Part shown: positions 19,333-64,000 of the stretch, in pieces | Numbering within the stretch: the first letter of the stretch is position 1 | Layout of the letters: each line of letters starts with the position of its first letter | Assembly (NCBI GenBank): GCA_002189035.1 | Contig: NEEC01000010.1 | Location: 1,984,001 to 2,048,000 of the forward strand | Direction of reading: 5' to 3' | Length of the DNA stretch: 64,000 nucleotides | DNA from: Utricularia gibba | Taxonomy: Eukaryota; Streptophyta; Magnoliopsida; Lamiales; Lentibulariaceae | Program-made: the position numbers and the translations under genes | The notes under the pieces: generated by a model | What the model was told of the DNA's origin: nothing | Database searches by the model: none | Seen by the model: only the letters and a program-made list of their open reading frames with translations

Positions 19333-20100
19333 TCACCACAACTCTCTGCTTCCTTTGGTCGCCACCATCTTCTTCTTCACTTCTTCTTCTTGGCAGCTTT
19401 TCGCCGGAGCCGAACGGCAACGCATCAGAATGAGAGCGTTCTGCGGCGGAGAAACCGTCTTGGATTCCTCCTCCTCATCTTCATCATGATCGTCGATAGA
19501 TTTTTCTTGTGATTCGTCTTTGGTTTCGGTCAGAATCATGTACAAGTTGTAGAGTACGTCCCTTGATTGATGATGATGATCGCTCTCCGATGGGGGATTT
19601 CCAATCGACTGTAAGAAGGAAGAAAAGGACGTGAGATCGTGGCACATTGGTTTTCGTAAAATTACTACATACCGCGTCTTCAACGTCATCGTTATCGGAA
19701 ATGACGTCAGTCGCCGGAAAATTCCCGAAGCATCGGAGCTCGAGCAAGCCACTGGCGAACCTACGAGCCCCGCTCCATGACGATCTCTTTTTCCAGTTCT
19801 CTGACGACCCCTTCGGCGACGGGACTTTTACTTGTCCGGCACAGGTGACCGTCGGCGACGACGGCTCGGATGTATCCAAGCCATCGTCTTTAGCCAACAA
19901 ACAGGGGCTACCATGGCTAATACTGGAGCTCCTTAAGCCGTGAAGCTGGCGGGAGCGTCCCCGGCGGTGGCGCCCCCCGGCGCCGGCCTCACGGGGCTAC
20001 AAATAGGCTTGGGGATCAATCTCCATTGAGGCCTGGTCGGAAAACGCACCAAAGAATCCCGCGGCGGTGGCAGAGACCCCAGCCGATCTCGGCCTTCCAT
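19333..20100 (-). CDS. Syringolide-induced protein 14-1-1-like, one-base frame break in exon 1
   Basis: Exon 2 (19608-19333) and exon 1 (to 19673) contain family hallmarks: RSSSISHGSPC, SEPSSPTVTCAGQVKV, ELRCFGNFP, an acidic patch, and PPQNALILMRCRSAP near the C-terminus. Members are plant-specific proteins of unknown function named after a soybean elicitor-induced transcript. No ATG is available in the frame of exon 1. A second frame, opening with an ATG at 20100 (MEGRDRLGSLPPPRDS, then RPQWRLIPKPICSP), runs to a stop at 19933 and overlaps it. One extra base in the C6 run at 19973-19978 would fuse the two frames into a 234-residue protein. I treat it as one gene with either an assembly indel or a recent frameshift. 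A 53-nt intron alternative is too short to be likely. Confidence 0.7.
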
Positions 20101-21298
20101 CATGGAGAAGAAATCACACTGTCGGGGGCAACCCAGATGGAAAACTAGAAATGGCCAAGTCTCGCTTCAGTAGCCTCTCTTATTCCTGTCCTGATCCCAA
20201 TTTACATCAGTTTATAAAATTGTTATGGAACGACGTTGAACTCATTCCAGCCGCGAACTCGTAACATGGGTTAAAATAAACAAAATCCTGATTAAAATAT
20301 TAAATTGTTCGTACGAAAATTAGTTCATAGTGTTTTTTGTATCATTGGCATTGGTTTAGTTGGCAACTTTATGATGCTTTTGGCTGCTTGTAAGTTGATA
20401 GTGGAGTTACACACAAGATAGGGTATTAAAGAATGAATGAAAATTGGAAGAGATGAGTTGTTTGTGCTGATTAAATGGTACGTGGTTAGGTTGGGCAATT
20501 AAATTTGTTGGGTTGTAGCCACCTGGGCTGATTGGGGAAGCTACCAGCTGGCTGCCTTACTCAACTAGGCTGGGCTCTGTCTCTGTCTCCGTCTCCGAGC
20601 ACTGATACTGGATTATCCCATCGCCTGAACTCCACCGCTCTCCTCCTCACCCATCACCATGCTGAAAGCCTACTGTATCCACAAGTGTGGTCTAGTGCAT
20701 GTGATGCCATTGTAGCCATGGAAAGCCTACTCCTTTCTTCTCAGATTCATGACAACTGGGTTTCATCATGCTTTCTCAACTTTGTTCGCGTATTTAGACC
20801 ATGTTATTCCAAGAAAGTTGCATCTTGAGCTTAGTGCAGGCCAATGACAAAATGAATATAGGCAGAGCAAACAAACAAGGCAGATGGGCGAATGAAGGGT
20901 AACCTGTCTCTATCTCTCTCTGTTCTTTAGGCCAACCCTGTCCGGGTGCTTTTTAAACTATCCAAAATACACTACGCCCTTCGTACCATCCTACTATGCG
21001 CTCTGTACATGCACATGCACCATCCATCCACCTGGAAATAGACAAAAGATGGGGAATTTTATCACCCTTCTCGTTAGGAATTCACAACAAACAGAGAATG
21101 TTTTAAACACATGTATGCATCTTCACATCAGAACACCCTTTTATTTTCAAAAACAAGCATTTACACCGCCAAAATTTTGAAGTCCACGCCAAAAGCTCGG
21201 CAACAAAAAGGAAAAGGAAACAAAAGAGACATGGACAAGGCAGCTGTTAACTGAACTTTGGTAGTCCCAAGAAACGGAGGCCTCATGGATGCTGCAGT
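20101..21298. other. Intergenic: 5' flank of the 14-1-1-like gene and 3' flank of the WD40 gene
   Basis: The interval includes the probable 3' UTR of the minus-strand WD40 gene (about 21050-21298). ORFs (for example 20532-20828) are unsupported. No RNA gene recognised. Confidence 0.4.
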
Positions 21299-24200
21299 CT
21301 AAAATAAGCAATCCAAGTAGTGGTTGTATCGTTTACGTTTGAACTCCATCAAGCTGCCATACATTCTGTCAGAAACTCCCACGAACAGTGCTTCAGTATC
21401 GGGACTGAAAGAGAGTCCAGCAATCTCTCCAAAAAGATCGATTTCCTGTCCCTTGGCATATCCAGAGTGCGTGTCGAAAACGTGGACGAAGTCAGCTGGC
21501 TCAGCCATGGCCAGGAACTGACCATCTGACGAGAATCTAATTGTCCTGATTGCTCCCATCCTTCCCTTGAGTATCACTAATGACTGTGATAGGTTCCTTA
21601 TGTCCCACAATCTGCATGTTTTGTCCTGGTTGCCAGTTGCGAGGATATGTCCATCCGGGTGCCATGCTGATGCAAAGGAGTAATCTAGATGCCCACTCAG
21701 AGTACTAAGGACCTGGACATATGAAATTTTCATGTTCATGAAATGTAGGAAGGGCACCACCCAACAAAAAAAGGGTAATCCAGGACAGGATTCCATACCT
21801 TCCCTGATTGTGTATCAGCAAGCAAGCAATCCCGACTGTCACCAAGGATAGCAAGCATCTTGCCATTGGGGCTAACAGATGTGTTCTGCAACAATTTGGT
21901 GACCAGAAGTTAGGCAACCGGTTATTTTCTCGGGAACTGCTGGCGAGGTATTCATTCCCTTACATTCACAGACCAAGGGAATGTGAAACGATTCAGGCAA
22001 GTGAACTTTGCAGTATCCATGACCCTGACTTGAGCATCGTTGTTAGCAGACATGACTCTCATTCCACCGCTGCATATGAAAATTGAGAGCAACATGAGCG
22101 TATCTCGGAGGAGTTGGTGATGCGTACAGCAACATACTGGAATGCATATCAATGTTCGCTTTATACCTGGTATCATAATATATGTCCACCGCATTTGTGA
22201 TGGCATTTTCGTCATTAGACAATTTTGCACAGAAAGCAACTCCAGGTTGGTCGATATACTGCAATAGAAACCTGAACTTACTCAAAAGAGCAGTTGTAGA
22301 GGCAGCCAGGTCAGATACCAAAATCTTAGTTATGTTGGCACCTTACAGATAAACTCCCCTTGAAAGCCTCCAGCCACAAGAAGATTGTCTTTGACCGCCA
22401 TAGTACTTATCTGAACCCTTGACAGAGGTTGGGCTAAACATCCAGGGTACCTCTGGATGAACGACTCAATATCAAACACGGGAAAGGCTTTTACTCAAAC
22501 TGATGGGAACCAAGTCGACGTTCCAGGTTGTGTTCAACTCACCAGGGAGGGAGATATAGACTTGGCAACATTGAGAACTTCCGTACCCTTCTTTTGTAGG
22601 GAGGACCAGTGCATCACAGAATAGTTTTGCATCAGGTACACGTCATGTTTTGAGGTAGACCACACCAGATTTCTCAGCTGAAAAGGTAAAATCCAGTTAA
22701 AACAAATTCCACGAAGAAATGAAGTTTTCCAGGTTTTAGAGAAGAAAGGAGCACACACACACATGACCCAGCCTCAGTATACTAGTGCTAAACTACGGTT
22801 AAAAAAGGGAAAATAAAACATGAATGGATGTAAACCAGAAACAAAATGGCAAGTTTGAGCGAAATCAGTAGCAGATTAGATCAAATTTCAAGCCAATCAA
22901 ACGCATCACAGAACAAAACTGAAGGCGTCAACAGATACAGATTGGGTGATATTGCATTTGTGGTCCAACTCAGTCCTTGAAAGGCTAGTGACTAAAACAG
23001 AAGGGTAAGCAATCACATAGAACAGTGCACACAAGCATGTAAATCTAGTTATCAACTACCACAATAACTGGCTGCATAACTTAGTCCTGATCTAACCATA
23101 CTCAAAAGATCTGTATCTGCCAGCCGCTCAGACAAAAACTGCACTCCAGCTAATGTGTCTGAAATAACAAGTCAAACATAAATTTGGGGGTGGGGGTGGA
23201 GGGTCTGAAGTCCTTCAAATTTGTGTATATTACCTGCAACCTAATCAGAACTAGGCCTAACATAGTGAATAAAAAACTAAATAATGAATTCTAAATAGCC
23301 AAGTGCTAAGCTAAAAAAATTGTCCAGGAATGCCAAGTTATTGGCTCACCGGAATCTGTTCCTTGACACAAAGCTAGGAAAACCAAGGGGTGATAGCAAG
23401 GTAAAAATTTCAAGATTGCACCTCCCAAAAAGGTAAGGTGAATAATTTATCAAGCGACTCTTCGCATTTTTTAATCTGCACAAAAAGGATTAGGTAAATT
23501 ACAGGCCCAGTCCATGTCACTTGAACTGGGGAAAAGCGTCTGAAACTAAGCTATTCTCATTATCAATCATCGCGGAAGAAACTCACCCAACATCACTTGG
23601 ACGGAGAAATAATCTAAAGAACCTTACCACATATCCAGAAAAACAAGCAACGATTCAAACAAGGTGGAAAAACATCAGAAAAAAAAGTAGGAAAATGTTC
23701 AACGCTGATATAATGAGAACTTGATGCAGCTTAAAAACTTTAAACCTTCTAACAAGCGCAACTGGTGCTTCCGTGAAATGAAATAGATGCATGGAAAGTG
23801 GCTAAAAGATTGTGTAGCAACTTGCAAAAATGGAAAATAAAACTTTTGGGCAAAAGGTGAGGACGAATGAGAAGTTGCACGGTAGAGTTGGGTGTTGTAT
23901 GATCAACAGTGTGTACCACACAACCATCAGATGCATTTTCTGCAATAGAAGGCCATAGAATTTCTGTTAATCTTTACCTGAAAATGCACTATGGTAGATT
24001 TGACCACTCTAGTGTTGAATTGAAAATCGTAAAACTGATGTCCCTTCTCCACTTGGTGGCATGTCTGCGCAAAAAATAGAACAGACACATTACTTCAAAA
24101 TTACACTTAGAAGCGAGCACCCATATTCGCACAGAAATCAGATTGCAGCACGAATCAACAAATATCCGCGGGAAATCATCACCTTATCAAGATCCTCAGG

Positions 24201-24553
24201 AGAGTTAGAGAGATTTTCGTAATTCTTGTACTGCTTCAAACGGGAATCACGATACTTTTCTCTGGTAAAACTTAGTCGCTCCCAAGGAATACCCTGTATG
24301 TCTTTCCCATTCCTGGCTTCGTAAGCTGAAGTATCGGTTCTGGAATTGCTCTGTAATTGAATTCAAGATTATGCGGAATAAACCAAAAAACCAAATTAGA
24401 AAAACTTACGATATCGAAATCATCTTCAAAGTCAGACTCAGCAGACTCGTCATCGACGGAAGCGCTTCCACTTATCAGTGCAACGTCATCGTGACCAAAA
24501 TCAGAGAAGTCATCATCGAAATACTCCAACTCGTGGTTCTGAAACTGCTCCAT
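21299..24553 (-). CDS. WD40-repeat protein (C2A9.03-like)
   Basis: Nine exons, approximately 24553-24410, 24350-24183, 24064-23978, 22677-22543, 22452-22343, 22258-22167, 22069-21964, 21885-21799 and 21712-21299, coding for about 447 residues. My exon 5 length is one base short of frame, so its edges are approximate. An acidic N-terminus (FDDDFSDFGHDDVA) is followed by the family's helical segment (GIPWERLSFTREKYRD), then WD repeats; the clearest are FASAWHPDGHILATGNQD with KTCRLWDIRN, and FSSDGQFLAMAEPADFVHVF, then LSFSPDTEALFVGVSD. This matches plant homologues of the fission-yeast WD protein SPAC2A9.03, of unknown biochemical role. Intron 3 is about 1.3 kb, long for this window. Upstream to about 25170 there are probable 5' UTR introns. 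Confidence 0.88.
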
Positions 24554-27500
24554 GACTCTGCAACTACACAATAAAGGAAACATCAAATAAAATAGTCAAA
24601 CTACAACAAATCGTGCAAAACACATTTGATTCAGAGCGATCTACACACTACAGTAAAAACTCACATAAGATCCTACAGAATATTCAATCGAATAAAGCAA
24701 GTACCACTTCTTCGCTTACAAACCTCAACACAGAGTATGGAAATGCAAAAACGATAAAAAGTGGCCGAATCAATTCCGACGACGTTACAAAAGCAACAAT
24801 AATAGCAGCAAAAAAAACAACGACCAAAGATTCCAACAGCATAACGCACGCCGCACGGCATCGGAATGAATATCCAAAGAAAACAACAGGTAAAACACAC
24901 AAAACAACCGAGTCAATGGAAAAAAACTAACGAACTCTACCTGAAGTTTCAAACAGGGCACAGACCAGTGAATTAACGATGTTTTGCGGAAATCAGGGGC
25001 TGAGAGATGATCGAAGATGAAGAGATGAAAAAACAGACAAAGGATGTCAAAGTCTCGAGAAGACTCCAGAAGGAGGAAGAAAACTGACACTCCTGAGCGC
25101 CGTCCCCAACCGGTGAGCAATCCTCTGCCGCCTTTCTCTATACTTATAGTGTCAGAAAGGTTGAAGAGACTGCCGTGCCCCACACTTGACGGAAGGAGCA
25201 CGCCGTTACATTAAATGTTTGTTTTTTTTATATTTGGTGTTTTTTTTTGCCTTGTATAATTGAAACAAAGTACGGAGTTTACTTTCATTAAACCCATTTG
25301 AATTCTTGAATATCTACCTAAATCGCATAAATTTGGAAAGAAAAACAAATCATAAGTTGACTCACGCTCTACTCTCAAACCATTGACTCTTTTTAAAAAG
25401 AAAAAAAATTAGTTGGTAACGGCTTTTAAATTTGTGTCAATTATGTCTAAAATTCTCGTGCATCACTTAAATACTAATTAATGTTTGTTCTTTGAGTAAA
25501 TGAAGCATTAAGGGAAGGATGGGCATGGGCTTTGGCGGTTGTGAGAGAATTAAAATAAGTTTATTTTAATAAGATTTAAATTAATCTATTGTGTTAGTAA
25601 GGCACAGTGCAGCGAGTTAAATTAGAAACAGCAGTCAAAACAAGGAAGAGCGAGGGAGTGTGGGCCCACTTTCCCAAAACCGAAGGCGGGACCCACAAAA
25701 TATGTAGAGTAGCCTTGGCGCCACAAGGTGCGATTCGGTAGGCTTTCACGAGACGGAACACGAGGTCGCAGATGGCTTACGTGGCGGGGAGGGGGCCCAC
25801 CTGGTGGACGCCGTCAACAGACTGGCGGCCGTTCATTTAACCGTGGTTGGGTTTTTGGAAATCAGGGTGGTTGGGTTAATGTGGGGCCCAGTTGTCGTTG
25901 TCGGTCACGTGTGGGGCCTTCCTTCTTTCTTTTTTTCAAGGGGTTGGTAGCTATTTTTTAATCGACGATGGAGGTGGAAGACTGAGATCGACGGTGGATC
26001 CTATTTGGGGTGGGCCCCGTCTGCTTTTGGGAAATTCTCAATTTTTATTTTTGAAACGCATTAATTTAATTCCCGTTTTGCGCACAACTTTCCTTTATTT
26101 GTTTTATGTGCACCCGAAACAAAACAAATACAAACACATCCTCTAAAAAAAATAATTTTTCAGTACTACATTTCGCTCTTATTCGTTTTCACCCCCTTTC
26201 GTTCATTCTCGTAAATCAAGGTTCTCTGCTCTTGTTTCATGGCGATTCTACCACCTTCCCTAATTTTAATTACAAAAAAGTTCAAATTAAAATGATCCTC
26301 CTGGTCTAAAGAATGATAAAATCTTCCCAAAGAGAAAACCCCTGGCTCACTGCTGTTTTCCTGCGCTGATGCCGATCTGCTTTCTGCAACGCCTTATTCT
26401 CCTCCTCGGAGACGACGGCGGCGCTGCTGCATCATAACGGGCGTTGGGTATGTATGTTTCCGTTGGACAAAGCTACCATCATCATCATGCCTGCAAAAGC
26501 ACATTCAGATTGCACAATCAAAACCCTAGGTTGGATACCCAAAAAATATCTGGATGCCGTCGCGTAGTGTCAGCACTTTTCAGATATTTTGTGAAAACTA
26601 TCTTCGGCGTGAAGGACCCGGTTACCGATGGTGGATGACTCGTCGGAATGATTGATCCAACGTTTTTCCACATTCCGACGGCCGTGAAAGCGCTGCTTGG
26701 TTTGCAAGCCATTGGTGGTTTTACACCACGTGGGCCTGCCTTCCCACTACCATAAACACACACATCATCACATAAATTTAATTCATTTTTTAGTTTATCT
26801 TTAAATAATAAAATCAATTTAATTAAAATTCATTATCATTTAACACATATTTACAGGTGGCGCATGGATGGCAGCCTTCCATTAAAATAATAATCAGTGA
26901 TCATGGATCAGAATTCATTAATTCAGGAGTGGTTAAAATATCTAAAATAAAAGAAAATCGATGGGCGTGGTGGTGGGGGGGCACGGGAGAACTTATTCAT
27001 GATAACCATCACGTTTCCCTTTTCAGAAATGACAAAACACTTGAAGATAACTTTAAGATTCTTATCACCATGGTGACGCCACCCATGATAACCTTTTAAA
27101 TTTATTTAATTTCATAGGATAATGGCATCTCCACTGTCGACGTGGAGTACAAGATATTTTTGAAGTGATGACTCGGGGTCGGGACTGGAAAAACCATCTG
27201 GAAAGCAGTTGGGCCGCGTCAGCCCATATAGGTGCTTAGCGAAAATAACGAGCCAACCCAATACGGCGTGATGGGCTCACACCCGGCCCAAACCTCACCA
27301 CATTTGCGCACGGACAAGGTGCACTTTTCAGTTTTTAATTATATATTAGTGAAATACTATAATTGATCTCCAAGAAATTACTATTTGTAAAATTTTACTA
27401 TGAGAAAATTAATTTGAAAATATTAACTTCCAAGTTCAATTTCATTTATTCCTGTTGCTAGCCACTAATGGCTGCCAGCCTAACCAGCACCGAGTCCAAT

Positions 27501-29620: not shown

Positions 29621-29667
29621 TGTGGTTTAGAAGGTGAGCGGTGGTTGACTGGCGATGAGTAAAGTCA

Positions 29668-29673
29668 TTTATA
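29668..29673 (-). promoter_or_regulatory. TATA box of the polygalacturonase gene
   Basis: TATAAA on the minus strand in the context GCTATAAATG, 48 bp before the start codon. Position and context fit a core promoter; the transcription start is not observed. Confidence 0.5.
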
Positions 29674-29945
29674 GCAGGAGCTTCCAGTTCAGACTCGGAA
29701 ATCTAGGAACTTTTCTTCATGGAAATTGTCAGTAACGGTTAATTGTAAGACCAGCGCAAAATGAGATCTGGTGATACGACAGTGTCTAATTTTGAATATC
29801 ATTTAAATTATTAATTATTAATTAATAAAATATTAAAAATATTAAGCACCTATTTTTCTAACAGAAAAGATCCACGAGGTTACCGGAACTAAACTTGTTG
29901 TTGATATAACCCTAATTGCATTCAGATCGCGATCGGTGGTCAACG

Positions 29946-41604: not shown

Positions 41605-44601
41605 ATGGCAACCAAGGAAATGGGAGATGAGGGCATTCCGTCTTGTGAGAGTGATCATCGGACACTGCCATACAAAGTTGGTGTTCCTCCAAAGGAGAAG
41701 CTTTGGACTCGGTTTTCCAACGCAGCGAAGGAGACTTTCTTCCCGGATGACCCTCTCCGGCCGTTCAAGGATAAGTCGAGGCCTCGGCAGTTCCTTCTTG
41801 CGGTGGAGGCTTTCTTTCCGATTCTGGGGTGGATCAGAAGTTACAACTTGCAGAAGTTCAGAGGAGACATCATTGCAGGGATTACTATTGCCAGCCTATG
41901 CATTCCTCAGGTATAGTTCTTTTGCTGAATCCTCATGACCCGGTGGTCTCATTCCCCTTGGCTTTCTTCGATGGATCAGGATATCGGATACAGCAAGCTG
42001 GTGCACTTGCCACCACAGTTTGGTTTATGTAAGTGAAGCTTCACAGATCTCCTTTCACTTACCGTTAAGATGGATGAGTAGGAGCTTGTGTCTCTGAGCA
42101 TACTCTATTTATGACTGTATTCATCAGATACTAGCTTCGTCCCACCGTTGGTCTACGCGTGCATGGGCAGCTCAAGGCACATAGCCATAGGGCCAGTATC
42201 TGTAGTATCCCTCCTGATGGGGAGTTTGCTCCAGAGTGAGATTGATCCTGTTAAGAATCCAGTGGACTATAGAAGACTAGCATTTACGGCAACGTTTTTC
42301 GCCGGTATAACACAGGCTGGCCTTGGCATGCTCAGGTAACAAACATTCCTGTTATTTCATCGAAAACTCTAGCAGCGGATGATTGCAACTCAGAGCTAGT
42401 ACTTTTGCCTCTCTACAGGCTGGGATTCTTGATTGATTTCTTGTCCCATGCTGCTGTTGTTGGTTTCATGGGTGGCGCTGCCATCACCATATCACTCCAA
42501 CAGCTAAGGGGTTTCTTAGGAATTCAGAAATTCACCCAAAACACTGATGCAGTCTCCGTTATGCACTCAGTCTTCGGCTCAGCTCACCATGGGGTTAGTA
42601 TCCTCTTCACTTTCTCTCTTCAATACCTGCTCGCTTACTGACAGAAGGACTGGGACTGAGCATTTTTCAGTGGAACTGGCCCACGATAGCCATCGGAAGT
42701 GCATTTCTTGTGCTTCTTCTAGTTGCTAAGTACATCGTAAGTGATAGTAATCCACAAGCTGCATCTGTGCTCATCATACAGAAAATCTTTCCATATTCCT
42801 TATCATATAACGTGATGTATAGGGAAAAAGGAACAAGAGGTTCTTTTGGGTACCTGCAATTGCTCCACTTATCTCTATTGTTCTGTCAATACTCCTTGTT
42901 TATGTTACCCGGGCCGATAAAGCAGGAGTACAAATTGTAAGACCACTTTCCATTTGTCGTCTGCCGCCCCTGAACTACACTCCATATGAATTCCTAATAT
43001 CTGGCAACCAAACTTTTCTTGTATTAATGCAACCAGGTGAGGCATATACAGAGGGGGTCAATCCACCATCATTAAGAGAGATATATTTCACTGGTGAATA
43101 TGTCTTGAAAGGGTTTAGGATAGGCGTAGTGGCTGGCATCATTGGACTAACGGTCAGCTGCTACATAAAGTAACTCTGCTGTATTTTTCCACTGGGAGGA
43201 ATGACAACTGATACTGAATTGGTTTTACCTGCAGGAAGCTGTGGCCATAGGAAGAACATTTGCTGCGATGAATGACTATCAAATTGATGGAAACAAGGAA
43301 ATGGTGGCTCTAGGAACAATGAATATTGTCGGTTCATTCACATCGTGCTATGTAGCAACAGGTCTGCCTGCAATGTTCACTCACATTATCTGCCTTCTAG
43401 AGAAGATCTAGAGATTAATCTTCTCTTGCTGAGATTACTTGCAGGGTCCTTCTCTCGTTCATCAGTAAATTATATGGCTGGATGCCAAACTCCCGTATCC
43501 AACATCATTATGGCCACCATGGTCTTCCTGGCTCTACAGTTCATCACACCACTTTTCTATTACATCCCAAATGCAATCCTAGCTTCCATCATCATCTCTG
43601 CTGTGATCGGCCTGATTGACTACCATGCAGCAATTCTAATCTGGAAGATCGACAAAATAGACTTTGTTGCTTGTATGGGAGCCTTCTTTGGTGTTATTTT
43701 CACCTCTGTTGAAACTGGCCTCTTGATTGCTGTAAACACTCATCCCATATAACCTTTCTTCACCTCAAACCTCCACATAATGAGCCAATACTAACCAGTC
43801 TCTCCCTCAACAGGTTTCTATATCATTTGCTAAACTGCTGCTACAAGTAACCAGACCAAGGACAGCCCTTCTTGGAAAGATTCCACAAACAAGAGTTTAC
43901 CGGAATCTGCAGCAGTATCCGGAGGCGAATAAGGTCCCTGGAGTGCTTATCATCCGAGTGGACTCGGCGATTTGCTTCTCGAACTCAAACTACGTCAAGG
44001 ATAGGTGACTTTCTCTTCCTTTTTGAACCTCTCTGCATACACTAGACTCAAAAATACCAGAATCGCAAGTGCTGCATTCTGATGTCTGTCTATCTGAGCA
44101 ACACTTGAACTCCGCCGATTGTCTACAGGATCTTGAGATGGCTGACAGACGAACAAGAGAGTCTCGCATCATCTGGATATCTTCCAATCCAATTCCTGAT
44201 ACTAGAAATGTCTCGTACGTAAATTTCCCCGAAACGGATCCCAATTTTCAATTTCAAACGGTAACCCTATACGTCTGAATGTCCGATTGATTACCTTCTC
44301 CACAGCTGTGACCGACATCGACACAAGCGGAATCCATGGCATGGAAGATCTCCACCGTGCTCTCCAGAAGAAGAATGTTCAGGTAGCAGTCGAAACCTTC
44401 TCCATCGAATAAGAAACTTAACTCCGAAAATTGAGCAACCTAGCGTATTTTCTTCAGTTGGTACTCGCGAATCCGGGCCCGGTTGTAATCAACAAACTGC
44501 ATGCGTCCAATCTCGCAAACGTCATCGGCCAGGAGAAGATTTTTCTCACGGTGGACGACGCCGTACAGTGGTGCTCGCCGAAGTTCGCTGCGAATGTCTA
44601 A
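41605..44601 (+). CDS. SULTR1: Group 1 (high-affinity type) sulfate transporter, one-base frame issue in exon 7
   Basis: Thirteen exons: 41605-41910, 41980-42028, 42128-42335, 42419-42593, 42671-42736, 42823-42936, 43037-43152, 43235-43361, 43445-43731, 43814-44004, 44129-44214, 44306-44382, 44458-44601. SLC26/SulP features: FKDKSRPRQFLLAVEAFFPI, ASLCIPQDIGYSKL, SFVPPLVYACMGSSRHIAIG, FTATFFAGITQAGLG, FLSHAAVVGFMGGAA, EAVAIGRTFAAMNDYQIDGN, GCQTPVSNIIMA, and a C-terminal STAS domain with EMSPVTDIDTSGI. Pattern and intron layout match SULTR1 (plasma-membrane H+/sulfate symport) better than groups 2-4. With the natural acceptor at 43037, exon 7 loses frame at the G5 run 43053-43057. An extra G gives 648 residues; alternatively an acceptor five bases downstream (43042) restores frame with 646 residues. 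Confidence 0.92.
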
Positions 44602-52213: not shown

Positions 52214-55032
52214 ATGTCTGACGCAGTGTTGTCGGGGCTCCTGAGTCAGTTAGCCACGATCTTGCAGCAGCAGATCGAGGGAGAGGTGAGATTAGTATCC
52301 GGGGCTGAAAGGGAATTGAAAAAACTGGAGAAAGAGCTGAAATCAATCAAGGCTGTGATTGCTGATGCTGAGAAGAAGCAGATTAAGCAAGAGCAAATCA
52401 AAATTTGGCTTGAAAGCCTTAAAGATGTTGCCTTTGACGCCGAGGATGTTTTGTGCGAGTGGATAACGGCTACGAGGAAAGCAGAAATGTATCACGAGAA
52501 TCACAAGGTATTGGCTTCTCTAATGTTTTTATCTGTTGGTTTTGACAGAATTGTCCTGCGTCGTGGTGTTGCCCTAAAGATAAAGGAAATCAATGAAAGA
52601 CTGGTTGAAATTTCGGAGCAGAAAGATCGATATGGGCTGAACGCTTTTGCTGAAACCACATCATTTGAGAGGCCAAAAGCAGTATCGTATGTGGATGAGT
52701 CGCAGGTGATAGGTAGAGCTTCAGACAGTTCTAGAATTGTAAGCATGTTGTTGTCTGATGGTAATCAAGAACAGGTACTAAATGTGTTCTCTATCATCGG
52801 CATGGGGGCATTGGCAAAACAACCATAGCACAAATGGTGTACAAGGCCGAAGATGTTATGGATCATTTCGACAAGAGAGTATGGGTGTGTGTGTCTGATC
52901 CTTTTGATGAAGCCCGAATAGCAAAAGCCATTGTAGAAGACCTTGATGATGATGTTCCTTGCTCAGATGAGCTTGAAACCGCGACAAGAAAAATCAGGTC
53001 TCGTCTGGGAGGGAAAAGGCTCTTGTTTGTCCTCGATGATGTTTGGACCGAGGACTTCCTGAGATGGGAGCAGCTTTTCCACTCTTTCGCTGTTTGTGCA
53101 GCTGGGAGTGTTGTTCTAGTGACTACACAAAAGGAAACTGTGGCAAGAGCAATGGGAAGCAGAGACGAGATCCACTTGAACCTATTATCAGATGCTGAAT
53201 CTTGGTCCTTGTTCCAAAAGTTCGCATTTGCAGGGAGGTCTAAACAAGAATGCCTTGTCCTAGAGAGTGTGGGAAGGAAGATAGCAGAAAAATGCAAGGG
53301 ATTGCCCTTCTCTCTCAAAACTATAGGAAATCTGGTGAGGTTCAAGAAGACCCAGAATGACTGGCTTGATATTTTGAATAGTGAATTTTGGGAGCTTCCT
53401 GAAGGTGTAAGACTATTCCCCCCTCTAACGTTGAGCTTCTATGAGCTGCCTTCTCCTATGAGACAATGCTTCTCATTCTGTGCATTCTTTCCCAAAGATC
53501 ATGTAATCGAAGCTGATAACCTCATCAAGCTTTGGATGGCACAGGGCTATCTGATCCCTTCTGGGAATGTGGAGATGGAGACATTAGGCCAGGAAATTTT
53601 GGAAAATCTGGCTATGAGCTCTTTCTTTCAGGACATCAAGAAGGACAAAGATAATGAAAGAATTCTAAGCTTCAAGATGCATGATATGGTGCATGATTTT
53701 GCATTGTATCTAAACAGGAATGACTTCTCTTCTGTCAAGATAACAAATGGTTCAGCACAAAAGTTAGAGCCTTCCCATGAAGGGGCTCGTCATTTGATCT
53801 TGATACGAGAAAAAGACACCCGTTTCCCGGACATTCATCATAATGCAAAGAAGCTGGCTTCGCTTTGGGTTCAAGCTTTTTATGATTCACCTCGTATAAT
53901 AAAAGGTCAGCCAGAGAGCATTGATTCAGCCTGGTTTCTAGGCTTGAACCGCCTCAAGGCACTAGACTTGAGCAGAAACATGATAGGCGAGCTTCCAAAA
54001 GAAATCGGAAACCTGATGATGTTGAGGTATCTGAACTTATCACACAATCCATTTGTCGAGTTGCCTCAGACATTGTCTGAGTTATTCAATTTGCAGACAT
54101 TGAAGCTTAATTACTGTTGTCATCTGGTAAGTTTGCCACTGAAAATAAGAAAGTTGATCAACCTCAGGCATCTTGAGATCAACAACACTGAAAAGCTCAA
54201 GTCATTGCCCAAAGGTATTGGGCATTTGGTTTGTCTTCAGACTCTGAGCAAGTTCACCATTGTCCATGGGAACAGCAGCGTTCACGCACCTGTGAGTGAT
54301 ATGGAAGATTTGAAGAACCTCAACAACCTCAGAGGTTTTCTGAAGCTCGAAGGACTTGGATACATATCAGGTGCCACTGAAGCCATGGAAGCTGAGTTGA
54401 AAAAGAAGATTCATCTATCTGAGCTACAAATGGAGTTCAATGATTGCACAGGTAATGGTAGAGAGGATGAGGTGATCAAAGCTCTAGAGGTTCATGAGAA
54501 CTTACAGTCACTGCAAGTAAACTTATATGGGGGGACTCAGTTTCCTTTCTGGTTCACTAAACTGAAGAACTTGAGAAAGTTATGTCTGCAGGACTGCAAA
54601 AACTGCTCAGATTTGCCTCCTCTGGGAAGCTTGCCAGCCCTTACTATTCTCCGACTGGAAAGACTCAATGCATTAAAGTGTCTTGGAATGGAAGGATCAG
54701 CTTCAATGCCGTCGGATGAACAAGCATTGTTTCCAAAACTCGAAAAGCTCAAGATTTTGAAATTGGAGAACTGGGAAGAATGGCATGTCAATGATACATC
54801 CACAGGTGGATCAAAGCTCCATGATGGAAGCTTGTTGATGTTTCCTTGTCTCAGGTATCTGAAAATTTCACACTGCATCAAGCTGAAGGCGCTGCCACCA
54901 CCTCTTCTCCAGGGAAGTCCAATGGTGAAACTGCGGATCCGAGGTTGCCCATTTTTAAAGAAACAGTACAACAAAGAAACTGGAGAGCACTGGAGCCAAG
55001 TCTCACACATACCCAAAATCAGAATTTCATAG
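52214..55032 (+). CDS. CC-NBS-LRR disease resistance protein, frame broken at the P-loop
   Basis: An intronless NLR in two overlapping-frame pieces: codons from 52214 to a stop at 52828, and a second frame to 55032. Coiled-coil Rx_N domain (KELKSIKAVIADAEKKQIKQ, DVAFDAEDVLCEW), then NB-ARC: SIIGMG..GK P-loop at the break, kinase-2 LLFVLDDVW, RNBS-B VVLVTTQKE (Gln for the usual Arg), CKGLPFSLKTIG (GLPL), CFSFCAFFPK, and KMHDMVHDFA (MHD). About ten LRRs follow (LKALDLSRNMIGELPKEIGN onward). The break is at GGGGG 52804-52808: a sixth G would restore GMGGIGKTT and a 939-residue protein. As given, the nucleotide-binding site is destroyed. NLRs sense pathogen effectors inside the cell. Confidence 0.9.
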
Positions 55033-55169
55033 GGGCGCTTGCGGTGCTTATTAATCGATGTTTGTTTTTACAAAATTTGGCATAACTGTCAACAATGGAT
55101 AGCCAAAGTTTTTTCCATAGAGATTTTTGAATGAATCCAAATGGCCCATGCTAGTCTGGTGGAAGTTTA

Positions 55170-55985
55170 AACAAGCAGAGTTTTCAATCAAGCTACTCTC
55201 GGTTCCCTGCAGGAAGATTATCATGTTCATGAAGACCGAGATTATCCAGTGAAAGGCAAGTATTGATCATTTAAACTTTAAAACCATGACTCCACTGAAA
55301 GCAGCATGTTGTTGGGACTCTTCAGTGCAGGATTCTCCTCAGAATGGAAGATTGAACCTGAAGATCTTCCTTATCCCAATCCTCTTCCCGGATTACAGCT
55401 CCCATTTTCAGGGCCAGGGCCACTTTTCTTGAAGACCTTGCACAATGCGTAGTATTCTCCAGTATCCATTACTTGTTGCTCGATTTGGCCTTTCTCCATT
55501 GGCGAACTTCCTATTTCGAGGACAGAATAAGAACTACTGCCGGTCTCTGGTTCTAAGCTTTTGACATCGCTGCAAGGCAGTAGCATGGTAATCAAAAGAA
55601 AGGAATCACAAGCTACACACCAAAGCAAAGGGCGCGGGCGCCGACGCTTACAAAAGATTTGATGTCAAGTAACAACATCCTATATTAGAATCAAATCCCA
55701 CACAACAAAAGACAGCAATCAACGAATGCAGCCAGACGTCTAACACAAGACAGAAAGATCTTACGAACAAAGGAAATGTGGATAAAATAGACAAGCAGCC
55801 GTTTACAGAAGAGCGAATGGCAAGGCACCCCACAAAGCAAATTTCCAGGATCACATTTCTACGCATCAAACTTACCGATCACATCAGGATGGTGGCGCTT
55901 ATAGCAGATCCTACTCTTCAGATAGTACACGACAAGTTCTTCATCCGTGGGGTGGAATAAACCGGAGACCCATTCCCATCCCAGC
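55170..55985 (-). pseudogene. Degenerate partial copy of the ANAC016/017-like NAC gene
   Basis: On the minus strand two blocks match the NAC gene at 45-47 kb. Block 1 (about 55985-55850) aligns to its exon 1 ([20 protein letters not shown]) but has a TAT-to-TAG stop shortly after and a lost donor. Block 2 (about 55575 down to 55170) begins at the same TTGCAG|CGATGTCAAA acceptor, has an extra A soon after, a TGG-to-TAG stop where the parent has RQWFFF, and a deletion of about 160 nt joining GYW directly to EYYALCKVFKK. Weaker similarity continues to the region matching GTETNLVEH of the parent. The acidic region and TM exon are absent. It sits between the NLR stop and the p23 promoter. Confidence 0.88.
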
Positions 55986-56318
55986 AACATAACAGGCGCA
56001 TTGAGAGTCTTCCGCTTCGGGTGGATCCGGCGATCGCGAAGACGACGAAGGGAAGAGAGTGCAGAAATTTGCAATGAGCCACTCACGAGCTGCCACATCA
56101 TATATATTGTTTTATTATTTTTTTTCCCAAACTGGTCTGAGAGGACAGCGGTGCGGGTCTGATCCATGAGCCAAATGCGGAGGTTGCGGGCGAGTTCCTT
56201 CGAAAAGCATCTAGAAGCCCCTCGAAGTTCTTGAAGAGCACCGATTCCATAAGCTTTAAAATCCCATTCCCGTCTGAAATTTGCAATCTTTCTGCTGCTC
56301 TGATCGCCAACTGCGAAC
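55986..56318. other. p23 promoter and leader
   Basis: Between the NAC pseudogene and the p23 start. A minus-strand ORF through it is an extension of the pseudogene frame and carries no family sequence. Confidence 0.4.
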
Positions 56319-57689
56319 ATGAGGTACTACACTACTGCTCTTAACCGCCGCTTTTGTGAACCTCTTGGAGTTTCTGTACCTAACGATTGGGTTCATGGTT
56401 TAGTTCCCGGAAGCGTGATCACTCGTTTCCTGTTTTCTTCTTCTTCTTTGAGGTAGTTTGTGTGTGTTTTTTTTTTCTGTTTTGTTGTCCAAATTTTTTC
56501 CAACTGAAGAAACAAGGCTAGTTAGTAAGCTTCTCCGATGAATCAGGACTTTCGAGTTGATGAACTATTTTGATTAGGGCTTATGCTTCGGCGTGATAGC
56601 TGCTGGCTTCTACTGACAGGGAATATTTGTTTCACTTGCCGCCTCCGGCCTTAGGATTTGTTTTCTCCTGTCCAGTGTGCTTCAGATTCTAAAATTCGTA
56701 GTAGGAGAGTCCGGTGTATTTGCCTAAAATAATTGAGTCCTGTTTGCGCCGGTTGATCGGTGCGTTACGATTTTTCAAGACTTTTAACTTCAATTCTTCT
56801 GTGTGAAGCCGACACCCGCTTGTAAAATGGGCACAGAGGTCCGACAAAGTGTTCATCACTGTGGAGTTACCTGATGCAAAAAATGTGAAGCTCAATCTTG
56901 ATCCCGAGGGAAAGTTCCAGTTTTCAGCTAATGCTCCTGATGGGACACCGTATGAGATCGGCATGAACCTTTACGACAAAATCGATATCAATGTAAGTGC
57001 CTCCGATTTTCCTCTTTATTCAGGAAAGTAAGAGACGTCTTAGATAAATGTTCCATGCATTTTGCTGTGGTGTATGCATGTGGGTGGTAGTTCGTTCAAG
57101 CAAATCCCTTCGATGGGTTTATCCTTTTTTTTACGCTCTTGAACCTGCGTGATTTTTTAACTTTTGTATTGGTAATCTGAACTCAGGAGAGCAAATCGAA
57201 CTCTACTTCTCGACATATTTGCTACCTTGTGAAGAAAGCAGAGAGTAAATGGTGGAGTAGGCTAGTAAAGGAGGGGGGGAAACCACCCGTATTCCTGAAA
57301 GTCGACTGGGAAAAGTGGGTGGATGAAGATGAACAAGATGAAAAAGGTTAGTATTTCAGATCGCAGTTCCTCTCTTCCTTGAGACTCCCATCTGATGCAG
57401 AACTCTTGTGTCTCTCAGCCGGCTCCGATTTTGGGGACTTCGATTTCTCTGTAAGTAATTGCTACACACACATATTCCTGTTTGTGGGCATTGCGCTGAT
57501 ACCGTCACATTTGACCTTTGTGTTCAGAATCTTAACATGGGTGGCGAAGCAGAAGATGAAAGCGGTGACAATGAGGAAGAAGAGGAAGGCCCAACAGCCA
57601 CCAGTGGCTCAACAAGTGAAATTGCTGAAACCATGGCACGAGGGAAAATGCATCAGCAGTATTTCCTCTCTTCTCGAGGCGTGTTTTGA
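56319..57689 (+). CDS. HSP90 co-chaperone p23
   Basis: Five coding exons (56319-56323, 56809-56992, 57187-57346, 57419-57450, 57528-57689) give 180 residues. The first coding exon is only five bases (ATGAG), completed across a 485-nt intron to [17 protein letters not shown]. The CS domain continues with [51 protein letters not shown] and [20 protein letters not shown]. An acidic tail ([14 protein letters not shown]) lacks the long MGG repeats of p23-1, so it resembles p23-2. p23 stabilises the closed, ATP-bound HSP90 complex in cytosol and nucleus. The five-base start exon makes this gene easy to misannotate from 56849. Confidence 0.93.
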
Positions 57690-57942
57690 ATGTTGATAGA
57701 CTCCTATATCCCTTTCTTCATCTCCTGTATGCATAGTTCTGATCATGCTTTATCTTTTCAACTGTCATATGCTGCATTGCTGCTACAGTTGAGATACAGA
57801 GTGAGGAGGAGGGAGAGGGGGGTTAATTTTCATTATGAAATATCATTTGCCTACAGATTAATTTCTATTTTTTTCCCCAAAAAGTGCCTAGAAATTACAA
57901 TTGGGGTTTGGGCACAGTGAATAGTCAAATTAGATTTTAGGG
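57690..57942. other. Intergenic, p23 3' UTR and promoter of the two-TM gene
   Basis: 253 bp, same orientation on both sides. No distinctive element apart from a purine-rich patch near 57797-57820. Confidence 0.4.
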
Positions 57943-59196
57943 ATGGCGACGGCGGACGGGGAGCAGGTAAGAGAAATTGAAGAAGATGCGCCACTGCTAT
58001 CGAAGGGGGTGGAGTTGAATCTGCTGCGATTCAGCGACCGCCGCGGACAGTCACGACGAAGGTTCCGGAGGCGGAGGTGCATCTTTACAGGCAGGGGAAG
58101 GGTCCGATCGATGTCGTGAAAGTGGCACTGGGCGGTTGGGAACAGGATCAGTTGGATGTCGGGGAGATTCTGAATAAATACGGCTTCAAGTCGGTCTACG
58201 CATTCGTTCCAGGTTCTGGTCGCGGCGTGCCGATTCGGTTCATGAGGAATGGCCGGTCCTTGCTTACGTACAGAGATGGCTCAGTTATATACCTCGATGG
58301 TGAACCCAAGGTGAGCAGACAAGAAGCCGATGCTTCTATTTATTTATTTTTCTCCCAAACGTGTGTTGATTTTCCTGTTTTTTTTTTGGGATGTCGTGTT
58401 TGATCATGGAAACTTGCGTTTAGTAGGATTCTTAGATGAAATTCCGGGATTGAATTGATTTTTTGTTTAGAATGAAGAAAGTTTATGCAGTGATGGTGCC
58501 TTCAGTGTGGGTACTGGAAAGCATTTCAACTGTAAATTGTAGCCTTTTGATGCTTCTGCAAATTTTAGGCTATTTTTCTGTTTTTCATCCTCGCGGTCAA
58601 AAATTGGCGCCTTCCCGACTCCTCTCGTGGTATGTGTTTCCCGGGTTTGGACTGTTGGATTGCGCATTTTTTTGAGTTTCTTTCGGGGATTGTTGAAGTT
58701 TTATAGGAGATCATGGAGAAGCAGGGAGCTTTGTAAAGCCATTGAAGTTTTTCTGGAATGCAAACAGTTGCTGACTATTGTGTGCCTTTATTATGCTGGA
58801 AAATCCTGTGAAATCTTCCCTTGGTTGACTGAGTATTGTGATCTTGATCTGCACTTATCCTAAACAGTTGCAGCTCTTTGATCCACTTGTGGGTTTATTA
58901 TGTTTTCTCCCTCTACGCTTTTTTCTTGGTGAAGTTTACGGTTGTTGTTAATGCAGGACTCACTGGTTCAACCGATCACCAAGATTATAGTAGGGGTTGC
59001 CGTTGTAACTCTGATGATTATGTTTGTCGTTAGAGAGACTCCAGAATGGGCAAAGAAGCTTAACTTTTCCGGCAGTGGCATCCCTCCATGGATTCTGGCC
59101 TGTGCAGTTATTGTTTTCACACGACTGAGGAAAAGAACCCGTAAGTTCTTGGAAGCAAAACTCAGTGACAAGTTGTTTTTCCCTTTCGTTTTGTGA
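57943..59196 (+). CDS. Plant-conserved protein with two C-terminal transmembrane helices, one-base frame break in exon 1
   Basis: Exon 1 57943-58310 and exon 2 58957-59196. The conserved core is EVHLYRQGKGPIDVVKVALG, GGWEQDQLDVGEILNKYGFK, VPIRFMRNGRSLLTYRDGS and VIYLDGEPK; exon 2 has TM helices KIIVGVAVVTLMIMFVV and IPPWILACAVIVFTRLRKR with an amphipathic segment between. I recognise it as a conserved plant family but know no function. The ATG frame (MATADGEQVREIEEDAPLLS) does not match the frame of the core. One more G in GGGGG 58005-58009 joins them to 202 residues. The C-terminus is uncertain: read-through gives RTRKFLEAKLSDKL and a stop at 59196, while a GTAAGT donor at 59141 could splice to 59216 and run to 59418, overlapping the neighbouring kinase tail. 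Confidence 0.75.
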
Positions 59197-59377
59197 GCAA
59201 AAATTACATAAACAGTGAAGTCCAAAATCCGGAGGATGTTTCTCCCAGACGGTGTAAAAGATGCTGCTGTTAAGCAGCAACTGATGGTTTTGTTGACTGT
59301 AATAAAATGGATGAGATGTATTGCACTATTTTCAAATCTACAAGTCACAGCATCTTCCCCGTTGCCCAAGTCTCCAT

Positions 59378-61572
59378 TCAAGTGCACTCAAACAGCTCTT
59401 GGTCGGAATCTGACCTGATTTGTTCAAGGAATTTGAGGGCTTCTTCCATTGAAGGCCTGTTATTAGGTTCATAATTCAAACATATTCTAGCAAGCGCTGC
59501 AGTAGCATGGGCAGCCTTGGGAGTATACCTCCCGTTCAGTGAAGTATCCATGATATTCGCCAACTGTGCTTTTTTATGCAAGCGAGGTCGCAACCAATAG
59601 ACGAGGTTGGTCCTCCCATGTGGACGACTCGGATCGTTGACACGTGATCCCGTAAGCATTTCTAGCATCACGACTCCAAAACCATACACATCACACTTGG
59701 CAGTCAAGTGACCTGTGTATGGAAGAAAACCAGTTAGTATTAGAAAGAAATGTATTACAATTCCAAAAGAGATTAATCAGTTTGGTAATAGGAAAACTGT
59801 CTTTCATCAAACGCTCCAGGAAGGATCCCGGTTTCATTTCTCAATCCACAGTGAGGATTCTTACCTGTTTCCATGTACTCAGGAGCAGCATAACCTTTCG
59901 TGCCTATTATCTGGGTGGTTACGTGGCTGAGGTTTTCTGCAGGGCCAGATTTTGCCAGACCAAAATCACCGATCTTTGGACTATACATCTGAGAGGCGAG
60001 TATCAAAAATGAAATGCAAGAAAAACGCTACGCATGATTGCATCCAAAGTTGGCGAGGCGACTTAGCATGAAAGGCTGTGTGTGTGGTCTCATCATGATG
60101 AAAAGAAACTAAAACGCTAGAGGAACTAGCCATGAACTAAACTACAGCATGCATGCAGCATGTGGGGCTTACGTCATGAAGCAATATGTTTGATGTCTTT
60201 ACGTCTCTCCATATAATGTTCAATGAGTGCAACAATGCAAGTCCTCGAGCAACTCCAGTTAGTATTAAAAGCCTCGTATCCCATCCAAGCACTGGACGAT
60301 CCTCTGTTAATAAAAACTGTACATTATAAGGCACTCGTGCTTCATGAATCTGGGTGGTTGGAAGGGAAACATGATCGCTCACTGTTAAAAAGGTGAACAT
60401 CCAGGCTGCCCAATTCCATGAATTCATATACAAGTAGTAGTTCCTTGTCTTCGCAGCAGTAGCCCAGTAGCTTGACCAGGTTAGGATGAGAAATCTTTGT
60501 AAGATGTATGATCTCCGACTGCAAGGACACTATAATAAGCTTTTAAAATGAAGAAACAATATCTATGTACTCCAAAAGCACGGGACAACTTTGCGCTAGA
60601 AAAGCACCCAAGAACAAAAGGCTGGGAAAGTTTTTTCTCGTTATTCAGACAGACAGAAAATTGTAATTGGAATAACACTTCAAAAATAATTGCTCGAATG
60701 ACACTCAGGATACATGGAAAGCAAGCACATGATGATAACTGAGGCAATGAGGAACCAATTAATCATGTTTTGTTACAGTTGAAGTGAGTGCGAGAGATTC
60801 ATGAACTAGGTGAATAAGGACAAAGCTACTGTTATAGACAAGTAAAATGAACAGAAAAACTGCAACCACTTGAGATTTCAAAGTTACCTTCCACTCTGCA
60901 ATCCCTTGCATGCTATCAGAACTCAACCTTTTAACAGCAACTGGGTAGCGTCTTTGAATTCTACCATCAGAATTCTTGAACCAACCTTTATAAACTGTCC
61001 CAAAGCCCCCACTCCCTAGGGCTGTACTGAAGTTTTCTGTAGCGGCCCGCAGTTCTGAAAAGGAGAAGACTCCATCTCCGGGAGCTGTAAAATATGCATT
61101 TTTTCAGTCCAAAGCTGACGAAGAATAGTGTTAATGAAGCTTGGAAGCACGAGTGTTCTTCCAGATCTAAAAATTGCTAGTTTTTTTTATTTTTGACCAG
61201 TGAAAAGATTTATCTAGCATACATGAGAATGCGAAGCTACGGAGTTAAAGATCGCGGACCAGTTTCCCAAATAGCTGTTAAACAGGATCGCAGAAATAGG
61301 ACTACAAAATAGAACCTTCCAGCACAATGCATCCATTTACTTGATGCAGCAGAACTCTCTTGGGGAGGGGAAGTTGGAATAAGAAAAATGTTTCTCGAAT
61401 ATGCTATGCATGATTCAGTACCTGATACTGGAATTGTGGAATCTTCCATTGATGACTCTTTGGTCTTCCAAACTGCATGAAAAGGGAGAAAACGTGCTAG
61501 CTTACCCATCGCAGTTTTTCTTCCATGCTTTTTACTGCCTGACAACATTTGGTTCTTCGATTGTGCCGTCAT
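59378..61572 (-). CDS. Receptor-like cytoplasmic kinase (RLCK VII/PBL type) with WRD catalytic loop
   Basis: Six exons (61572-61422, 61084-60888, 60518-60383, 60303-60173, 59988-59865, 59712-59378) give 357 residues. Kinase motifs in order: [14 protein letters not shown] entry, [11 protein letters not shown] Gly loop, VAVKRL Lys, [20 protein letters not shown], catalytic loop [43 protein letters not shown], and [11 protein letters not shown]. There is no transmembrane segment. The layout fits RLCK VII, cytoplasmic partners of receptor kinases. The usual (H/Y)RD is WRD (TGG); Asp and the Lys/Asn of the loop remain. The N-terminal exon starts inside copy C of the local triplication ([20 protein letters not shown]) and has no Gly2/Cys acylation site, unusual for RLCK VII. 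Confidence 0.88.
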
Positions 61573-62010
61573 ATCTGTGGAGCCAGAATGTATGGTTGTA
61601 AGTGGGAGAAAACCTGTTTTGATAACTGGGACAAACTAAGATACCCTAGTTATTTAAAGCTCACCCACTGCAGTTTTTCTTCCATGCTTTTTACTGTCTG
61701 GCAACATTTGGTTCTTCGACGGTGCCAGTGGGGCTGTTTCATTAGCTGGTCCAAAGTTTAATACCCTAGTTCTCTCGACTCGCTCAGAAAATGAAACTGC
61801 TATGGGAACTGGGATAAACTCAGGTACCTTAGTTTCCTCAAGTTCACCCATTGCAGCTTCTATTCCATGCTTTTTACTGCCTGACAACATTTGGTTATTC
61901 GACTGTGTCATCGGGCTGAGAAGCCAGAGGGTGCGGTAGTAAACGGGAGAAAATCTGTTTTCCTAAGCGGGATAAACTCAGATACCCTAGTTATCTCATT
62001 TGGCATCAAA
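61490..62010 (-). repeat. Three diverged tandem copies of a ~160-185 bp unit between two kinase genes
   Basis: A core reading CAAATGTTGTCAGGCAGTAA on the minus strand, followed by AAAGCATGG, recurs at about 61865-61895 (A), 61682-61712 (B) and 61522-61552 (C). Flanks repeat as well: each unit begins with AACTA(G/A)GGTA(T/C)CT(G/T)AGTTT and ends with AAACTGC(A/G)(G/A)TGGGT. Each has a possible AG acceptor before and a GT donor (GTGAAC, GTGAGC, GTAAGC) after, so the unit resembles a duplicated exon. Copy A overlaps the CrRLK1L C-terminus and stop; copy C holds the RLCK start codon. Confidence 0.85.
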
Positions 62011-64000
62011 GATTTGCCATGTTCCTGCTTTTCCAGTGCAAGTTCCAGGTTTACAATGACATGAGCTAGTGTTGGGCGTTTACTTGGCTCATCATGCAAA
62101 CATTTCTCAACGATCCCAAGAAATACTGCCAGACTATCTGGTGATATTTCCTTTTTTATAGATTCATCAATAATCAAGTCACGTTCACCATTCCAGATTT
62201 TATTCCGAGCCCAGACAATTAGACTGCGCCTATCCTCTGCTGCGAATGGCTCCACTGCTGGTCTGCCACAGAGTACCTCTAACAACACCACACCAAAGGA
62301 GTAAGTGTCACTCTTGGCGGTGAATCTCTGAGTTATGATATAATTTGGGTCCAAGTAACCAGGTGAGCCCTTCACGTGTGTGCTTACTAGACTTTGCAGC
62401 ACCTTCCCACTCTCCCATTTAGCTAAACCAAAATCTGAAACCTTTGCTACAAGCTTTTCACCAAGTAGAATATTTGAGGACTTTATATCACGGTGAATGA
62501 TCTCATGTCCAGTGTGAAGATAGTCTAGCCCCCGAGCAGCTCCAATGCATATGCCCAGTCGTTGGATCCAGGAGAGAGAGGAGGCTTCTGCATTTTTCCT
62601 AGAGAATTTATACAGATGATCAGCCAGCGATCCGCAAGGAATGTACTCATAGACAAGTATCATTTCACGATGCGCCTTGAAGTATCCAATGAGAGAAACC
62701 AGGTTGAGATGCCGCAGATCAGAAAGAGCTTCAATCTCTGTCCAGAACTCACGCTTCCCTTGCTTGGAGTTTGCCTTCAATCGCTTAATGGCCACTGTCT
62801 CCCTTCCATTGTCTATTGTCCCTTTGTAGACGTTGCCAAAGCCTCCCCTTCCAATCAGAAATCGGTCATGGAAGTCATCCGTACTAGATTTGATCTCATC
62901 AAGTGAAAAAAGACGGCATAGCCTTTTAGCCCTTGCGGACGGCTTGTTTTCAGCCACATCTGTGAACTCAACTCCGAGGATCTTTCGCAGGAGGTGAGCA
63001 ATAACGTTGGCCAAACAAATCAAAATAACGATGACATTGGAAAATCCATTTCTACGACCAATAAGCAAGAAGAATGCATGCAGACCAATGAGTGGCGATG
63101 AATTTGGCACTGATGGCAAGATGGGATTTAGGCCTGCAAGACTGTTGTCGAAATTGCTGATCTTGAATATCTCAAATCCCTCAAAAAGATCATTTCCATC
63201 AGTGAATCCATATTCAGAATGGAAGGAAACAACAATGTCACGCTTGGCGTCCCGTTTTCGTCCACTCAGCACCACCATGTAGCTCTTTTGCCATAAGAAA
63301 CCTTCTTCTTTCCTCGACTTCAGAACGTCCTCGGCAGTGGCTGCGACTACCCCATCAATGACAACCGAGAAATCCTTTCCTCCGGCTTCTACAGTTTTGA
63401 GTCCAATCTCAGAGAAGTGAACCCTTACCATGTACCTAAATCCCACATCCACTGATGTCTTCCATGTCATGTTCTTCTCAATCGTTGATTTATCCTTCTG
63501 CTTCAAATTTCTTTTCCATGTGCGTGCAAGGTTTCCTACATCACCAACCAGGGTTGGAACTGAATCCAATTTCATGTCCACTCTTCGCACAATTTCTACA
63601 GCCACACCCCTATCGATATTCTGTCCAACTAGTGGAACCCCATTTGCTCCCCCTGACAGGACAGACCAGAAGGCAGTGAAACAATCTCAATGCCGTTTAC
63701 AAATGCATAAGCCTTGAATAATGGAGACGGTATCGGAGTAAAGATTATATCTAGCGGCTGATTTTCTTCAACCGTCAAGCAAAATTCCTTGACAACAGTA
63801 TCCAGCGCAAGTGCGCGGGCGGTGATGGAGGCACTGAAGTTATATAAAAGAGTGAAGGAACCAGCTTCAACACTGAATAAGTCGGTGATATCCTCGAATC
63901 CCTTACCAAAATGAAGACGGATGAACTTCTCGCCGGGATTGAGCCGAAATCCATACGAAAATTGCGCGCGAGAAACCCGAGCCGTGGAATACGGAACCAT
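61908..64000 (-). CDS. CrRLK1L (FERONIA/HERCULES-type) receptor-like kinase, 5' end beyond window, one-base frame break
   Basis: The malectin-like ectodomain is partly present (SYGFRLNPGEKFIRLHFGKG, DFSVVIDGVVA, GFEIFKISNFDNSLAGLNPI), followed by a hydrophobic segment FSNVIVILICLANVIAHLL and a kinase domain: IGRGGFGNVYKG, VAIKRLK, GYLDYLHTG-type helix (ARGLDYLHTG), HRDIKSSNILL, VSDFGLAKWE, GSPGYLDPNYI, SFGVVLLEVLCG. This is a plasma-membrane wall-integrity/RALF receptor family. The ectodomain frame (64000-63629) and the rest (63605-61908) are offset. One additional G in the run 63649-63653 (C5 on plus) would give the family sequence SGLSCQGGANGVPLVGQN and continue. The single long exon is typical of the family. 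Stop at 61908-61910 overlaps an ATG in repeat copy A. Confidence 0.9.

What the first reader, a model, noticed from the sequence alone, without database searches (positions are those of the whole stretch)
19973..63653. Five independent frame breaks, each repaired by one extra G in a short G run
The 14-1-1-like gene (C6 at 19973-19978), SULTR1 (G5 at 43053-43057), NLR (G5 at 52804-52808), two-TM protein (G5 at 58005-58009) and CrRLK1L (C5 at 63649-63653) each lose frame. In every case the direction is the same, one base missing, and adding a G rejoins conserved family sequence. In three (NLR, SULTR1, CrRLK1L) conserved residues pin the break to the run or within a few bases. Random mutation would mix +1, +2, stops and other bases. 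A shared direction and context points to homopolymer undercalling in the consensus. Intact longer runs do occur (G7 in p23 near 57272), so it is not universal.
Basis: partly seen in the sequence, partly recalled or inferred. Interest (0 to 1): 0.85.

Follow-up and report, generated by a model that had tools for sequence, protein, structure and literature searches.

The report
Assembly drops bases in G runs
Several plant genes in this window look broken because the long-read assembly left one base out of short runs of G or C; this is an ordinary sequencing artefact, and duplicate contigs in the same assembly show it directly.

Summary
All five runs are where stated. Each leaves its gene one base short, and in four of them relatives in the same genome pin the break to the run or a few bases around it. 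The fifth (two-TM protein) has no relative and is bracketed only by its open frames. The 14-1-1-like gene has two further -1 breaks: one best placed in a C5 run (19288-19292), one in a GAA repeat (about 19365-19389) that is not a homopolymer.

The assembly (100 Mb, 516 contigs; consistent with the PacBio-only HGAP assembly of the bladderwort Utricularia gibba) holds redundant contig copies. Six such pairs (30.7 kb) differ by 2 substitutions but about 26 indel blocks. G/C runs of 5 or more disagree in 8 of 27 cases, A/T runs in 7 of 193 (p = 7e-5). In 38 NLR and malectin-kinase loci (94 kb coding), all eight breaks outside the window in otherwise intact genes are -1; six lie in G/C runs, none in 276 A/T runs of 5 or more. 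True pseudogenes in the sample show mixed lesions and stops.

Most breaks are therefore consensus undercalls, not biology. The 14-1-1-like gene may be partly decayed. No reads were available for the window's own sites.

The parts
19973..19978 (-). C6 run (G6 on coding strand) in the syringolide-induced 14-1-1-like gene; one base short, frame break
   Evidence: DP alignment with both paralogs places the -1 at this run
19365..19389 (-). second -1 frame break of the 14-1-1-like gene, in a GAA/GTG repeat without a G/C homopolymer; not in the original finding
   Evidence: L071 alignment; weaker, called with one of two paralogs
19288..19292 (-). C5 run (G5 on coding strand), third -1 frame break of the 14-1-1-like gene, before the conserved C-terminal GGI..I..R..SCRR stop; not in the original finding
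   Evidence: coordinates
43053..43057 (+). G5 run in SULTR1-type sulfate transporter exon; one base short
   Evidence: frames and paralog exons L067, L068
52804..52808 (+). G5 run in the P-loop (GMGGIGKTT) of a CC-NB-ARC-LRR gene; one base short
   Evidence: Rx_N in one frame, NB-ARC/LRR in the next; -1 localised to 4 nt inside the run
58005..58009 (+). G5 run in the two-TM protein gene; one base short
   Evidence: only bracketed: break within 57981-58119, downstream frame lacks its own ATG; no paralog
63649..63653 (-). C5 run (G5 on coding strand) in the malectin-like ectodomain of a CrRLK1L kinase; one base short
   Evidence: -1 localised to a 13-nt interval containing the run
57273..57279 (+). 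G7 in p23-like co-chaperone gene, frame kept: shows the undercall is not universal
   Evidence: read from the sequence, run listed

Best explanation
The breaks are consensus errors of a PacBio-only assembly. Short G/C runs (true length 5-7) were called one base too short, which shifts the frame of otherwise intact genes. Shown: the genome holds redundant copies of the same DNA that disagree almost only in homopolymer length, mostly G/C when counted per run, and breaks of the same kind and direction occur in otherwise intact genes on many large contigs. Inferred: that the same process made the window's own breaks, since no second copy or read of those sites was available.
For: Six redundant contig pairs, 30.7 kb: 2 substitutions against about 26 indel blocks; G/C runs of 4 or more discrepant 12/106 against A/T 8/503 (p = 1.6e-5); of 5 or more, 8/27 against 7/193 (p = 6.6e-5). 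L019 (3.4-Mb contig) and L021 (32-kb contig) have zero substitutions; each lacks one base at a different G/C run where the other copy has it. In 38 family loci (94 kb coding) the eight breaks outside the window in otherwise intact genes are all -1; six lie in G/C runs, none in 276 A/T runs of 5 or more; G/C runs of true length 5 or more broken 5/54 against A/T 0/276 (p = 1e-4). Genuine pseudogenes in the same sample (L012, L024-L026) show mixed +1, -1, 2-base shifts or stops. SULTR1, NLR and CrRLK1L are otherwise open through the read exons or homologous span. U. gibba was assembled with HGAP from about 88x PacBio reads (PMC5793159); that paper describes HGAP as using only PacBio long reads and polishing with Quiver. 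RS II assemblies have more indels, reduced by Illumina polishing (PMC8495745), and homopolymer-length errors are the commonest residual error of long-read-only bacterial assemblies and cause frameshifts (PMC8812927).
Against: No read data, cDNA or redundant contig covers the window's own sites. The 14-1-1-like gene has a third break outside any homopolymer and two intact paralogs, so it could be a decaying duplicate. One break outside the window (L007, small contig) is not in a run, and one (L047) is in an ambiguous CCC/T context. Redundant-contig rates include small, probably low-coverage contigs and so overstate the rate in large contigs. One of the six pairs is weaker as same-locus evidence: L024/L025 are two copies within one small contig.
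Confidence: 0.93

Rival explanations
1. Genuine pseudogenisation: the genes carry real frameshift mutations, as expected in a lineage known for gene loss.
For: The 14-1-1-like gene has three breaks, one outside a homopolymer, and two intact paralogs. Real pseudogenes do exist in this genome (L012, L024-L026).
Against: SULTR1, NLR and CrRLK1L each have a single lesion and no stop or second shift in the part read. All breaks go one way and sit in G/C runs, unlike the mixed lesions of the real pseudogenes.
Confidence: 0.05
2. Real length variation of homopolymers in the plant (allelic or somatic slippage), faithfully recorded in the contigs.
For: Redundant contigs could be haplotypes.
Against: Only 2 substitutions against about 26 indel blocks in 30.7 kb; allelic copies normally differ at least as much by substitutions. 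A/T runs of 5 or more, which also slip in vivo and are far commoner, disagree about eight times less often per run (3.6% against 30%).
Confidence: 0.015
3. Programmed -1/+1 ribosomal frameshifting or RNA editing restores the frame at G runs.
For: Shared run context at unrelated genes.
Against: SULTR1 paralogs encode the same stretch in frame without any G5-6 run; other CrRLK1L and NLR genes are in frame at the site. Unrelated genes would have to share the device.
Confidence: 0.005

Closest known systems
Residual homopolymer indels in long-read-only assemblies (PacBio RS II / HGAP-Quiver)
   Same: Single-base indels, enriched in homopolymers, very few substitutions, frameshifts in otherwise intact genes
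   Different: Nothing essential; here the bias to G/C over A/T runs is measured from redundant contigs of the same assembly
Pseudogenes
   Same: Frame breaks in genes
   Different: Pseudogenes here carry mixed shifts and stops; the genes in question carry one -1 in a G/C run (14-1-1-like gene excepted)

Membership tests
Long-read consensus homopolymer undercall | Same DNA assembled twice differs by indels, not substitutions | tested here: met
   2 substitutions against about 26 indel blocks in 30.7 kb
Long-read consensus homopolymer undercall | Differences concentrate in homopolymers and rise with run length | tested here: met
   G/C runs of 3, 4, 5, 6: 2/345, 4/79, 6/22, 2/5 discrepant
Long-read consensus homopolymer undercall | Frame breaks are deletions of one base | tested here: met
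   8 of 8 outside the window in otherwise intact genes, 7 of 7 in it
Long-read consensus homopolymer undercall | Raw or accurate reads show the longer run at the site | not testable with these tools
   no reads available; none of the window sites tested has a redundant contig copy
Long-read consensus homopolymer undercall | Assembly made from long reads without short-read polishing | tested here: inconclusive
   literature only: U. gibba assembled with HGAP, a PacBio-only pipeline polished with Quiver (PMC5793159); species identity inferred from contig statistics
Pseudogene | Several lesions of mixed type, including stops | tested here: not met
   SULTR1, NLR, CrRLK1L: one -1 each in the part read, no stops. 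14-1-1-like gene: three -1 breaks, no mixed type, undecided
Programmed ribosomal frameshifting | Shift site conserved among relatives | tested here: not met
   paralogs encode the same stretch in frame without the run (SULTR1) or without a break (14-1-1)

The most novel reading that the evidence does not exclude
Some of the breaks, most plausibly those of the 14-1-1-like gene, are real and mark a duplicate that is decaying, with G/C-run slippage as the first step.
Probability: 0.06. Interest if true: 0.25.

Novelty: not a real feature. Interest (0 to 1): 0.15.

Why it matters
It is a warning for any gene-loss or pseudogene claim made from this assembly: in the conserved gene families sampled there is roughly one false frame break per 12 kb of coding sequence, and about one in ten G/C runs of five or more in coding sequence is short. 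The redundant contigs give a reads-free way to measure such error in any assembly that keeps them.

Tried and rejected
Looked for a redundant contig over the window's own sites: none for SULTR1, NLR, two-TM or 14-1-1. Paralog-based localisation alone with 75%-identical references misplaced two breaks (L019, L021); direct DNA comparison fixed them. +1 or +2 calls in non-pseudogene loci appeared only at alignment ends (L008, L029, L042/L043 C-terminus), upstream of the homologous start, or where the reference itself lacked a base; low-identity alignments (L050, L051, under 45%) gave shift calls with only one of two references. None of these was counted. Candidate breaks in L038 and L057 were left out because those genes appear to contain introns. 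Asked whether the published truncation of UgDCL3 (PMC8333044) could be such an artefact: it does not look so; see noticed items.

Full report
1. What the window is. The window lies in a 3.5-Mb contig of a plant assembly of 100.09 Mb in 516 contigs. This fits the PacBio assembly of the bladderwort Utricularia gibba: a paper on that assembly mentions a 6.8-Mb unitig (PMC8333044) and contig C451 here is 6.82 Mb. The species name is an inference. A review states that U. gibba was assembled with HGAP at about 88x from PacBio reads, and describes HGAP as using only PacBio long reads and polishing with Quiver (PMC5793159).

2. Observation. All five runs are at the stated coordinates. NLR: the Rx_N domain is in one frame and NB-ARC plus LRR in the next; two references both give a single -1, localised to four bases inside the G5 of the P-loop. 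CrRLK1L: single -1 with two references, localised to 13 bases containing the G5. SULTR1: paralogous exons on C412 and C3 read KITAG-VNPSS and HIKRG-INPSS in frame, and the window's frames switch exactly at the G5; by reading, the other exons are open. 14-1-1-like: two intact paralogs (C98, C409) place the first -1 at the C6. Two-TM protein: no paralog; the break is bracketed to 57981-58119, where the G5 is the longest G/C run (a G4 is also there), and the downstream frame has no ATG of its own before the domain.

3. More breaks than reported. Against its better-matching paralog, the 14-1-1-like gene shows two more -1 breaks: one best placed in the C5 at 19288-19292, after which the frame ends in the family's conserved ...GGI...SCRR-stop, and one in a GAA repeat near 19365-19389 without a homopolymer. 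The 3' part is divergent, so these two are less certain. The window thus holds seven -1 breaks, six of them in G/C runs.

4. A natural experiment. Family searches showed that some small contigs repeat parts of large ones. Six near-identical pairs (30.7 kb aligned) differ by 2 substitutions and about 26 indel blocks. G/C runs of length 3, 4, 5 and 6 disagree in 2/345, 4/79, 6/22 and 2/5 cases; A/T runs of 5 or more in 7/193. For runs of 5 or more the G/C to A/T contrast has p = 6.6e-5. In the pair L019/L021 (no substitutions in 3.7 kb) the large contig lacks a G in a G4 and the small contig lacks a C in a C5; each run is complete in the other copy. So undercalls occur in large contigs too.

5. 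Breaks across the assembly in conserved genes. A frame-aware protein-to-DNA alignment of 38 NLR and malectin-kinase loci (94 kb of homologous coding span, some of it redundant; two of the 38 are window genes) found eight breaks outside the window in genes otherwise intact: L007, L016, L019, L021, L047, L053 and two in L055. All are -1. L016 and L021 are C5 to C4, L019 G4 to G3, L053 G5 to G4, L055 G6 to G5 and G5 to G4; L047 is in an ambiguous CCC/T context and L007 is not in a run. None is in the 276 A/T runs of 5 or more (G/C 5/54 against A/T 0/276, p = 1e-4). By contrast L012 and L024-L026 carry several lesions of mixed type or stops, as real pseudogenes do.

6. Conclusion. The best explanation is homopolymer undercalling in a PacBio-only consensus, strongest in G/C runs; literature describes the same class of error (PMC8812927; PMC8495745). 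This is shown for the assembly and inferred for the window's sites. There is no new biology here; the value is a caution for gene-loss claims and a simple calibration from redundant contigs.

Noticed in passing
L073 (G000:C213:2753600-2763300): The published N-terminal truncation of U. gibba DCL3 (PMC8333044) does not look like a frame artefact: the candidate DCL3 exons (PAZ, RNase III) start near 6.7 kb of the locus, no Dicer_dimer match lies upstream, and by eye an SR-type splicing factor on the other strand (about 4.2-5.3 kb) occupies the space where a helicase would be.
   Followed up: partly
G000:C377 vs C321, C439 and C415 vs C414, C422 vs C414: Small contigs repeat parts of large contigs; gene counts from this assembly (for example NLRs) are inflated by these copies.
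   Followed up: partly
window 10849-10875: A run of 27 G in the assembly, flanked by further G5 runs, while short G runs are undercalled elsewhere; origin unknown.
   Followed up: no
window about 19608-19672 (- strand): A 64-nt GT..AG intron-like insertion in the 14-1-1-like gene that both paralogs lack.
   Followed up: no
window 61440-61910: Near-repeated segments (CTTCCATGCTTTTTACTG..TGACAACATTTGGTTCTTCGA) between two kinase genes, seen by eye.
   Followed up: no
L012 (G000:C304:2291954-2295607): A genuine-looking NLR pseudogene near an intact 93%-identical copy (L010), with shifts in both directions; a useful in-genome control.
   Followed up: yes
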